64,000 nucleotides of DNA, taken from a virus. The stretch is from positions 1 to 64,000 of the IMG/VR virus record IMGVR_UViG_3300028027_000060; one strand, 5' to 3'. The notes below the pieces were generated by a model. That model ran no database searches. It was not told the origin of the DNA and saw only the letters and a list, made by a program, of their open reading frames with translations. Positions 5,117 to 59,963 of this stretch are shown one piece after another. The translations under genes were made by a program, and so were the position numbers. Each line of letters begins with the position of its first letter. Positions within the stretch are counted from its first letter, which is position 1.

Positions 5117-5147
5117 TTGTAAGCACTGAAGTTATAACTATATTTGC
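5117..5147 (+). promoter_or_regulatory. Bacteroidota-type promoter, TTG-19-TATATTTGC
   Basis: TTG at 5117-5119, 19 bases, then TATATTTGC at 5139-5147: an exact match to the primary sigma-factor promoter of Bacteroidota. The ATG at 5155 is 7 bases beyond the box, so the transcript would have almost no leader. It starts a new unit for the nuclease operon. Confidence 0.75.
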
Positions 5148-12971: not shown

Positions 12972-12979
12972 CAAATATA
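12972..12979 (-). promoter_or_regulatory. Promoter -7 box TATATTTG before the lysis genes
   Basis: On the minus strand TATATTTG is followed after 4 bases by the holin ATG. No TTG is found 19-20 bases upstream, so this is a partial match. It would let lysis genes be expressed separately from the fibre operon. Confidence 0.45.
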
Positions 12980-22192: not shown

Positions 22193-22201
22193 GCAAATAT
22201 A
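22193..22201 (-). promoter_or_regulatory. Promoter -7 box TATATTTGC for the fibre operon
   Basis: A perfect TATATTTGC on the minus strand, 15 bases before the ATG at 22177. No TTG lies 19-20 bases upstream, so the -33 element is weak. It follows the terminator at 22207, making 22177-12982 a separate late unit. Confidence 0.55.
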
Positions 22202-22206
22202 AACGA

Positions 22207-22232
22207 AAACCCCCAGCCATTGCCAGGGGTTT
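22207..22232 (-). terminator. Terminator insulating the fibre operon
   Basis: AAACCCC pairs with GGGGTTT around a 12-base loop; on the minus strand the stem ends in TTTTCGTTT. It would stop transcripts arriving from 22690 and precedes the promoter box at 22193. Confidence 0.55.
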
Positions 22233-22336
22233 CCTTAATCATCTTTAAATCACTAAACCTAAAACTATAATCACTATAAACACACACATAAAATCGGGGC
22301 GAATATATACGCAGATCTTGCATACGCCAAATTATT

Positions 22337-22367
22337 TTGCATTAATTAAGATTTGTTGTATATTTGC
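22337..22367 (+). promoter_or_regulatory. Plus-strand promoter, TTG-19-TATATTTGC, inside the late region
   Basis: TTG at 22337-22339, 19 bases, TATATTTGC at 22359-22367: a full match. It points against the surrounding minus-strand genes and no plus-strand gene follows, only the candidate RNA at 22371. Confidence 0.8.
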
Positions 22368-22370
22368 GGT

Positions 22371-22447
22371 GCAAGTTCGCGTACAATCTGTACAGTCGGG
22401 AGACGAGAACTTTGAGGGCGGGCTGATCACCGCCCTCTATGTTTTCT
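22371..22447 (+). ncRNA. Candidate small RNA with own promoter and terminator
   Basis: About 77 bases between a full promoter and an intrinsic terminator. The 5' part folds as a three-way junction: AAGTTC/GAACTT (22373-22378 with 22407-22412) enclosing GTACA-ATC-TGTAC (22381-22393) and GTC-GGGA-GAC (22395-22404). The 3' part is a terminator stem GAGGGCGG/CCGCCCTC (22414-22421 with 22430-22437) followed by TATGTTTTCT. It contains no frame of useful length. It is antisense to any read-through from the 22690 gene into the fibre operon. Unknown to me as a described RNA. Confidence 0.7.
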
Positions 22448-22480
22448 AGAAGGTATACAAAAAAATAGTCGGGAAAACTC

Positions 22481-22698: not shown

Positions 22699-22706
22699 CA
22701 AATATA
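22699..22706 (-). promoter_or_regulatory. Promoter -7 box TATATTTG before the 69-aa membrane protein
   Basis: TATATTTG on the minus strand, then 8 bases, then the ATG at 22690. No TTG at the expected distance. The box overlaps the gap after the 1164-residue gene and would give a nearly leaderless mRNA. Confidence 0.45.
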
Positions 22707-26209: not shown

Positions 26210-26701
26210 TTAGAATAGTTTTTTCTCCAACAGGAGCATGTTGAACTTGTCCTTCGCGTCTACGCCCTCGAGCATGTTGAGCTTGTCGCTATACTCGGCC
26301 ACTGAGTCCTTCTGGATCTTGCGGAACTCCTGTAGGAAGTCGAACACGCACAAGTCCTTCTTGAACACCTCCATTGACGTGCCCTCGTAGTCCTCGTACA
26401 GCGCATACTCGATGAGGTACGCGTTCTCGATGACGTCGATGAGTCCGCCGAAGGTGATCTGCGGGCGGTCTACGGTAGGAAGCTCTGGGCTGATGTTCCA
26501 GTCCACGAGGTAGTCCTCAATCTTCTTTGCATGCGTCAGCTCGTCTGCCGACTCCTTGGCGAAGAACTCGGCCGCCTTGAAGTAGCTCACGTTCTGGCAC
26601 CAGTTGCTGGCTGCGCGGTAAAAATAAAACGCGTTGTACTCGTCCTTGAGGCGAGGCAACAGCAGGTCTACGACCTCTTTATCTAACTTATTTGGTGTCA
26701 T
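26210..26701 (-). CDS. Ferritin-like diiron protein
   Basis: 163 residues aligning without gaps over long stretches to bacterial non-haem ferritin (FtnA), from recall of the E. coli sequence: FYRAASNWC, AAEFFAKESADELTHAKKIEDYL and FDFLQEFRKIQ. Ferroxidase ligands appear conserved at Glu21, Glu54, His57, Glu97 and one Gln of the C-terminal helix; the position of the sixth ligand reads Ser. Ferritins oxidise and store iron in 24-subunit cages; a phage copy inside a virion operon is unusual. It is coupled by ATGA to the 1293-residue gene and lies 3 bases before the 1164-residue gene. Confidence 0.8.
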   Translation of the reverse strand: MTPNKLDKEVVDLLLPRLKDEYNAFYFYRAASNWCQNVSYFKAAEFFAKESADELTHAKKIEDYLVDWNISPELPTVDRPQITFGGLIDVIENAYLIEYALYEDYEGTSMEVFKKDLCVFDFLQEFRKIQKDSVAEYSDKLNMLEGVDAKDKFNMLLLEKKLF

Positions 26702-59625: not shown

Positions 59626-59817
59626 ATGTTTATTGTTTCAATACTAGCCGTTTTATCCTCACTTGTTTTTATGATGAAGAACTCCATATATGGCTGTGGA
59701 AAAAGGTGTTACAAGACCCGAAAGGAGGCCGAGCAGCTATGCGACGGAGATCAAAAGGCGTATATGTGCTGGGAGTGCGAAACGTGGCATATAAAAAATA
59801 ATGAAGAAAATCCTTGA
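59626..59817 (+). CDS. Small membrane-anchored zinc-knuckle-like protein (63 aa)
   Basis: 63 residues: a hydrophobic N terminus (1-16, MFIVSILAVLSSLVFM) then a Cys/His region: CGKRCYKTRKEAEQLC and MCWECETWHI. Similar CxKxxYxTxxEA...C..C..WH patterns occur in small phage zinc-knuckle proteins. Expected leaderless from the promoter at 59592. Its last codons overlap the TTG element of the next promoter. Confidence 0.7.
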   Translation: MFIVSILAVLSSLVFMMKNSIYGCGKRCYKTRKEAEQLCDGDQKAYMCWECETWHIKNNEENP

Positions 59818-59845
59818 CAACCTCGCGTGGTTGTTTTATGTTTGC
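59814..59845 (+). promoter_or_regulatory. Promoter, TTG-20-TATGTTTGC, for leader RNA and replication operon
   Basis: TTG at 59814-59816, 20 bases, TATGTTTGC at 59837-59845. Transcription would start near 59850 and run through a structured leader into the gene at 59964. Confidence 0.75.
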
Positions 59846-59849
59846 CCAA

Positions 59850-59957
59850 TATTTCACTCCTCGTTTGCTACGAACCACAGTAAACTAGGGTTGGAAGTTA
59901 AGTAAAGTTACTTATCAACCTAAAAGCTCGCAAAGTGGTTCTTGCGAGCTTTTTTAT
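59850..59957 (+). ncRNA. Leader RNA ending in a terminator (attenuator or small RNA)
   Basis: About 108 bases between the promoter at 59814 and the ATG at 59964. A small inverted repeat, TAAGTA/TACTTA (about 59899-59914), is followed by a strong terminator: AAAAGCTCGCAA/TTGCGAGCTTTT (59922-59933 with 59942-59953), loop AGTGGTTC, then TTATTTT. The terminator ends about 7 bases before the start codon, so either a small RNA is released or read-through is regulated. No leader peptide is obvious. Confidence 0.65.
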
Positions 59958-59963
59958 TTTACT

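What the first reader, a model, noticed from the sequence alone, without database searches (positions are those of the whole stretch)
22337..22447. Stand-alone small RNA gene antisense to late read-through
A perfect TTG-19-TATATTTGC promoter is followed by a compact three-way junction and an 8-bp terminator, all within 111 bases, on the plus strand where every neighbouring gene is on the minus strand. It faces the fibre operon's own terminator and promoter. It may regulate fibre or membrane-protein expression or target a host mRNA.
Basis: partly seen in the sequence, partly recalled or inferred. Interest (0 to 1): 0.78.

Follow-up and report, generated by a model that had tools for sequence, protein, structure and literature searches.

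The report
Conserved phage small RNA gene
A phage of Bacteroidota carries a separate gene for a roughly 75-base, folded, non-coding RNA that its relatives preserve almost letter for letter; what it acts on is not known, but a host target is likelier than the neighbouring phage genes.

Summary
Window 22337-22446 (+) is a complete small-RNA gene. It has a canonical Bacteroidota promoter (TTG-N19-TATATTTG). The conserved block starts at 22371, the +1 expected if that box lies at -12 to -5. A structured body and an 8-bp terminator follow.

Comparison with IMG/VR supports a functional RNA. The gene lies at the same place in 26 of 28 contigs holding the flanking genes. Among 18 distinct copies, 65 of 75 RNA columns are invariant, while flanking columns vary freely. 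The P1 and P3 helices are kept through double-sided changes in two distant lineages, and the GGGA loop never changes. G-U pairs in P2 point to the plus strand, and loop-length changes rule out a protein. One clade has lost it cleanly.

No Rfam family matched. No copies were found in 84,980 prokaryote species (one pattern) or among phage and plasmid records (BLAST).

The RNA points away from the fibre operon, and no phage mRNA target survives a shuffle test. Best reading: a trans-acting, host-directed RNA from an early-type promoter, possibly a decoy. A CRISPR-repeat mimic (Racr) is possible but unproven. It is a new RNA family of a known kind.

The parts
22337..22366 (+). Promoter: TTG (22337-22339), 19-nt spacer, TATATTTG (22359-22366)
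   Evidence: Pattern scan, 6 strict sites against 0.78 expected; TATATTTG invariant in 18 of 18 distinct rows; consensus TAnnTTTG at -12 to -5 in Flavobacterium (passages of PMC9723704)
22371..22446 (+). Small RNA, about 73-76 nt; predicted +1 at 22371
   Evidence: Conserved block begins exactly at the +1 predicted from the -12 to -5 placement; 65 of 75 counted columns invariant among 18 distinct rows, 0 of 4 in the four bases before +1
22373..22378 (+). P1 helix, 5' strand (AAGUUC), pairs with 22407-22412
   Evidence: Kept in L023 and L035 with double-sided changes (C-G to U-A in both; A-U to G-C in L035); outermost pair lost in both
22381..22393 (+). P2 hairpin (22381-22384 with 22390-22393), variable loop
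   Evidence: C-G to U-A double change in the window copy, U-G wobble in L012 and L022, loop length varies; absent from L023 and L035 types
22395..22404 (+). P3 hairpin GUC-GGGA-GAC, invariant GGGA loop
   Evidence: U-A to C-G double change in L035, loop unchanged in all lineages
22407..22412 (+). P1 helix, 3' strand (GAACUU)
22414..22446 (+). Intrinsic terminator: stem 22414-22421 with 22430-22437, loop 22422-22429, tail 22438-22446
   Evidence: loop 7 of 8 columns invariant
22300..22330 (-). Divergent minus-strand promoter-like site, back-to-back with the RNA promoter (TTG-N20-TATATTCG)
   Evidence: this region is retained in the RNA-less contigs L001 and L005
22205..22234 (-). Minus-strand terminator ahead of the 216-aa gene; probable end of read-through across the RNA gene
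   Evidence: hairpin seen in relatives and in L035

Best explanation
A stand-alone phage small-RNA gene, transcribed by unmodified host RNA polymerase from a full vegetative promoter and ended by its own terminator. The RNA of about 75 nt folds into a closing helix (P1) that presents a short hairpin with a fixed GGGA loop (P3), with an optional spacer hairpin (P2). It most likely acts in trans on a host partner, a host RNA-binding protein or complex (decoy) or a host mRNA. It is useful but dispensable to the phage. Shown here: promoter, boundaries, conservation, helix covariation, strand, single clean loss. Inferred: early expression, action in trans, host partner.
For: Same syntenic place in 26 of 28 contigs that hold both flanking genes, in three sequence types. 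65 of 75 RNA columns invariant in 18 distinct rows, against 14 of 68 upstream, 3 of 19 downstream and 84 of 213 in the 69-aa gene. In 5 phages whose aligned DNA is about 76-77% identical to the window, the RNA scores 0.925 and lies in the top 0.16% of 63,926 windows. P1 and P3 covary in two distant types with GGGA fixed; such a hairpin arises in 57 and 7 of 20,000 shuffles of their intergenic regions. U-G pairs in 2 of 10 rows fit the plus strand only. The promoter has the full TTG-N19 element, as at 5117, 59554 and 59592, whereas the adjacent genes have TATATTTG without TTG at 16-22 nt. No target in the phage passes.
Against: No transcript data. The host partner is not identified and no host genome could be searched for targets. 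Early expression is read from the promoter alone. Within the main type 19 of 21 pairs never vary, so the structure there is barely tested (60 of 500 shuffles reach the covariation score). The model built from the main type finds L035 weakly (E 0.043-0.56) and misses L023. L035 and the full-length window copy prefer other folds by energy alone.
Confidence: 0.55

Rival explanations
1. Trans- or cis-acting regulator of the phage's own late genes (fibre operon, 216-aa gene, 69-aa membrane protein).
For: It sits between those genes; the start region of the 216-aa gene is the best of 49 tested (z -3.7 with mononucleotide shuffles).
Against: 5 of 200 dinucleotide shuffles do as well, before correction for 49 genes; the pairing rests mostly on a T-rich terminator tail; no perfect 10-nt match is conserved in all aligned relatives; two RNA-less contigs keep these genes.
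Confidence: 0.15
2. RNA anti-CRISPR (Racr-like): a solitary CRISPR-repeat mimic that occupies host Cas proteins.
For: Own promoter and single copy, as for solitary repeat units (PMC10651486, abstract and passages). The core is bounded by GTTC/GAAC (main type) or GTTT/AAAC (L023, L035), and the main type contains ACGAGAAC, the 8-nt type III-A crRNA tag of staphylococci (PMC5687920, passages).
Against: The tag is absent from L023 and L035; in the main type the hairpin overlaps the tag instead of preceding it; the terminator loop is about as invariant as the core; no CRISPR repeat family among Rfam hits at E up to 10; no array found, but no systematic search of Bacteroidota arrays was possible.
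Confidence: 0.12
3. Antisense transcription unit: the act of transcription, or pairing with read-through RNA of the 69-aa operon, blocks read-through or the divergent promoter.
For: Convergent with the 69-aa gene, divergent from the minus-strand promoter at 22300-22330; no U-tract follows the stem on the minus strand.
Against: It would not require a fixed GGGA loop, compensated helices or an invariant terminator loop; the minus-strand promoter region remains where the RNA is lost.
Confidence: 0.1
4. A DNA element (for example a binding site or origin) or chance promoter and terminator, with no functional RNA.
For: Simple scans of the region find no excess of promoters or terminators; a short AGAAGGTA motif just beyond the terminator is also conserved.
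Against: RNA-like covariation, strand-specific G-U pairs and conservation that starts at the predicted +1.
Confidence: 0.05

Closest known systems
Stand-alone phage small RNAs that act on the host, such as lambda PreS (targets dnaN, needs Hfq) and Phi24B 24B_1
   Same: Short non-coding RNA encoded by a phage, thought to act in trans (outline and concluding section of the review PMC12197685).
   Different: No sequence or structure relation was tested beyond Rfam (no match). Those RNAs come from phages of Proteobacteria and use Hfq; here the host is Bacteroidota (inferred) and the target is unknown.
Racr RNA anti-CRISPRs (solitary repeat units)
   Same: Small single-copy RNA gene in a viral intergenic region behind its own promoter (abstract and passages of PMC10651486).
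   Different: No matching CRISPR repeat found; hairpin and tag geometry differ.
Independent small RNAs of Flavobacterium such as Rfp18, and of Bacteroides
   Same: Same TAnnTTTG promoter type, small structured RNAs (passages of PMC9723704; search listing only for PMC7366714).
   Different: Those are chromosomal; this one was found only in one phage lineage.

Membership tests
Stand-alone small-RNA gene | Own promoter | tested here: met
Stand-alone small-RNA gene | Own intrinsic terminator | tested here: met
   tail is TATGTTTT in the window, TGTGTTTT in most copies
Stand-alone small-RNA gene | Conserved RNA structure | tested here: met
   modest within the main type, clearer across three types
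Stand-alone small-RNA gene | Not protein-coding | tested here: met
   P2 loop lengths differ between copies by amounts that break any frame
Stand-alone small-RNA gene | Transcript detected | not testable with these tools
   No RNA data available
Any Rfam 15 family | Match at gathering score | tested here: not met
   0 matches in the window; permissive scans of all three types give only weak matches
Racr (RNA anti-CRISPR) | Solitary unit behind a promoter, no cas genes nearby | tested here: met
   family scans of 8 neighbouring proteins show no Cas protein
Racr (RNA anti-CRISPR) | Similarity in sequence and structure to a host CRISPR repeat | tested here: inconclusive
   Only an 8-nt tag match; no convincing hits in plasmid records; one 22-nt Prevotella match is inside a coding frame
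Racr (RNA anti-CRISPR) | Inhibits CRISPR-Cas | not testable with these tools
   Needs an infection assay
Regulator of the fibre operon | Conserved pairing with its mRNA | tested here: not met

The most novel reading that the evidence does not exclude
The RNA is a counter-defence decoy of Bacteroidota phages: a small RNA whose fixed GGGA hairpin captures a host defence complex (CRISPR type III or another RNA-binding defence system), made from the first minutes of infection by host polymerase.
Probability: 0.17. Interest if true: 0.78.

Novelty: new member of a known kind. Interest (0 to 1): 0.5.

Why it matters
Phage small RNAs are described mostly from phages of Proteobacteria, often with Hfq (concluding section of the review PMC12197685); a search for phage-encoded small RNA together with Bacteroidetes gave 3 papers, none on such an RNA by title. 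This gives a precise, conserved and deletable RNA gene, with natural RNA-less relatives, in phages of Bacteroidota. If it targets a host factor, it would be a handle on RNA-level phage-host conflict in that phylum.

Tried and rejected
Protein-coding: a 43-aa TTG-started frame overlaps the gene, but loop-length changes between copies break it, and the RNA has no ATG before its terminator tail.

Phage targets: perfect complementarity of 10 nt or more gave 6 places, none conserved in all aligned relatives. Start-region duplexes: 49 of 70 called genes had enough relatives to test; the 216-aa gene ranked first with mononucleotide shuffles (z -3.74), but 5 of 200 dinucleotide shuffles equalled it, so I dropped it.

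Partner gene: no window gene is present in all the sRNA-bearing main-type records compared (G003, G004, G007, G008, G009) and absent from both RNA-less ones (70 genes against 9 records; several records are incomplete).

Host copies: genome contigs, 0 relatives of the 69-aa protein and 0 matches to one RNA pattern. The first of these two scans was poorly spent. A 22-nt match in a Prevotella record lies inside a 323-aa open frame and is chance. An exact-core match in L054 has no promoter and lacks the rest of the RNA. Of the 60 loci of the loose pattern scan I kept those with a TANN box directly before TTTG and the RNA context; the others are chance or coding by their context.

Likeness of the terminator loop to the 3' end of 16S rRNA was noticed from memory only, not tested, and not used.

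Full report
What was checked. The reported promoter, hairpins and terminator are at the stated place. The simple scanner alone is not persuasive: in 9 kb it found 8 promoter-like and 10 terminator-like sites where shuffles give 8.7 and 8.8. The Bacteroidota consensus is more selective: 6 strict TTG-N19-TANNTTTG sites in 64 kb against 0.78 expected.

Where it lives. The window lies in a 70,061-base virus record. Terminase, portal and primase/helicase profiles match. The terminase is distantly related (24.6-26% identity in the rows listed) to those of 87 phage records: 68 Flavobacterium, 15 Cellulophaga, 2 Tenacibaculum, 1 Maribacter and 1 unnamed. With the promoter type this points to a Bacteroidota host (inference).

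Conservation. Searches with alignments of the 216-aa and 69-aa flanking proteins give the same 28 IMG/VR contigs. The RNA gene is between the two genes in 21 of 23 close contigs and in all 5 distant ones. The two without it, L001 and L005, lack the RNA and its -7 box, with intact neighbours, and form one clade in a tree of 23 distinct 216-aa genes (support 96/95): one loss. The four contigs of the L035 type are identical over the region printed, so they count as one lineage.

Among 18 distinct rows (L001, L005 and L023 left out, identical rows merged, columns mostly gapped skipped; L035 and L052 were not in this alignment) the -7 box is invariant in 8 of 8 columns, the next four bases in 0 of 4, then the RNA in 65 of 75, and the far flanks in 14 of 68 and 3 of 19. 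The jump lies at 22371. In Flavobacterium psychrophilum the TAnnTTTG box is at -12 to -5 (passages of PMC9723704), which puts +1 at 22371. Two independent lines therefore give the same 5' end.

Structure. The 41-nt core of the L003 type folds as a three-way junction. Within the main type only P2 varies: one double change and U-G pairs in two of 10 rows; 100% of cells pair, but 60 of 500 shuffles reach the covariation score. Across types, aligned by hand and checked against the sequences, P1 keeps five of six pairs in L023 and L035 with double changes, and P3 changes U-A to C-G in L035 while GGGA stays. P2 is absent from those two types. A closed NN-CGGGAG-NN hairpin arises in 57 (L035) and 7 (L023) of 20,000 shuffles of their intergenic regions. 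Against this, full-length energy folds of the window copy and of L035 prefer other pairings, and the covariance model detects L035 only weakly and L023 not at all. In the window copy GAGAAC can also pair with GUUUUC of the tail, so P1 and an extended terminator may compete.

Distribution. No Rfam match at gathering score. No match in phage or plasmid records by BLAST at E up to 1. No match to one pattern in 84,980 species. No match to the model in three distant phage relatives (W01-W03, two of them cultured). One copy per phage in the records searched, apart from weak reverse-strand echoes at the same site.

How it probably works. The promoter has both elements, as do those of the divergent early-type genes near 59.6 kb and at 5.1 kb; the adjacent genes have TATATTTG just before their start codons without a TTG at 16-22 nt. 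This suggests that unmodified host polymerase makes the RNA, probably early (inference). No phage target passes. Conservation covers paired and unpaired parts alike and, across lineages, keeps shape and GGGA loop rather than a long unpaired seed. That favours recognition by a protein, or a short loop contact, over ordinary antisense pairing (inference). The clean loss shows that it is dispensable. I therefore prefer a trans-acting, host-directed RNA, possibly a decoy.

Racr test. The GTTC/GAAC ends and the ACGAGAAC tag (seen in passages of PMC5687920) prompted the idea. Solitary repeat units are described in PMC10651486 (abstract and passages). It stays open at low probability.

In print. Text search for the core strings gave 4 papers, unrelated by title; phage small-RNA searches gave no such RNA by title. 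These cover only the held open library.

Noticed in passing
window 26210-26701 (-): A ferritin-like protein gene (PF00210, E 8e-18) inside the late operon; relatives at 69-91% identity in all 9 related records searched. Ferritin in a phage late operon seems unusual.
   Followed up: partly
window 22194-22201, 22699-22706 and 12972-12979 (-): TATATTTG boxes just before start codons of late genes with no TTG at 16-22 nt, unlike the early-type promoters: a possible late-promoter class.
   Followed up: partly
window 22205-22234 (-): A strong terminator sits directly before the -7 box of the 216-aa gene; its hairpin recurs in relatives, with GGCAACGG in the loop of many.
   Followed up: no
window 59761-59960 (+): A very conserved stretch with a TTG-N20-TATGTTTG site (59814-59844) and a strong terminator at about 59922: perhaps a second small RNA or a leader.
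   Followed up: no
window 22448-22460: A short motif AGAAGGTA(TA)CAA just past the terminator is conserved in the main type (7 of 13 columns invariant for 22447-22460); unexplained.
   Followed up: no
L192 254-802; L194 263-805: Distant cultured relatives carry a GroES/cpn10 co-chaperonin next to the terminase, as annotated.
   Followed up: no
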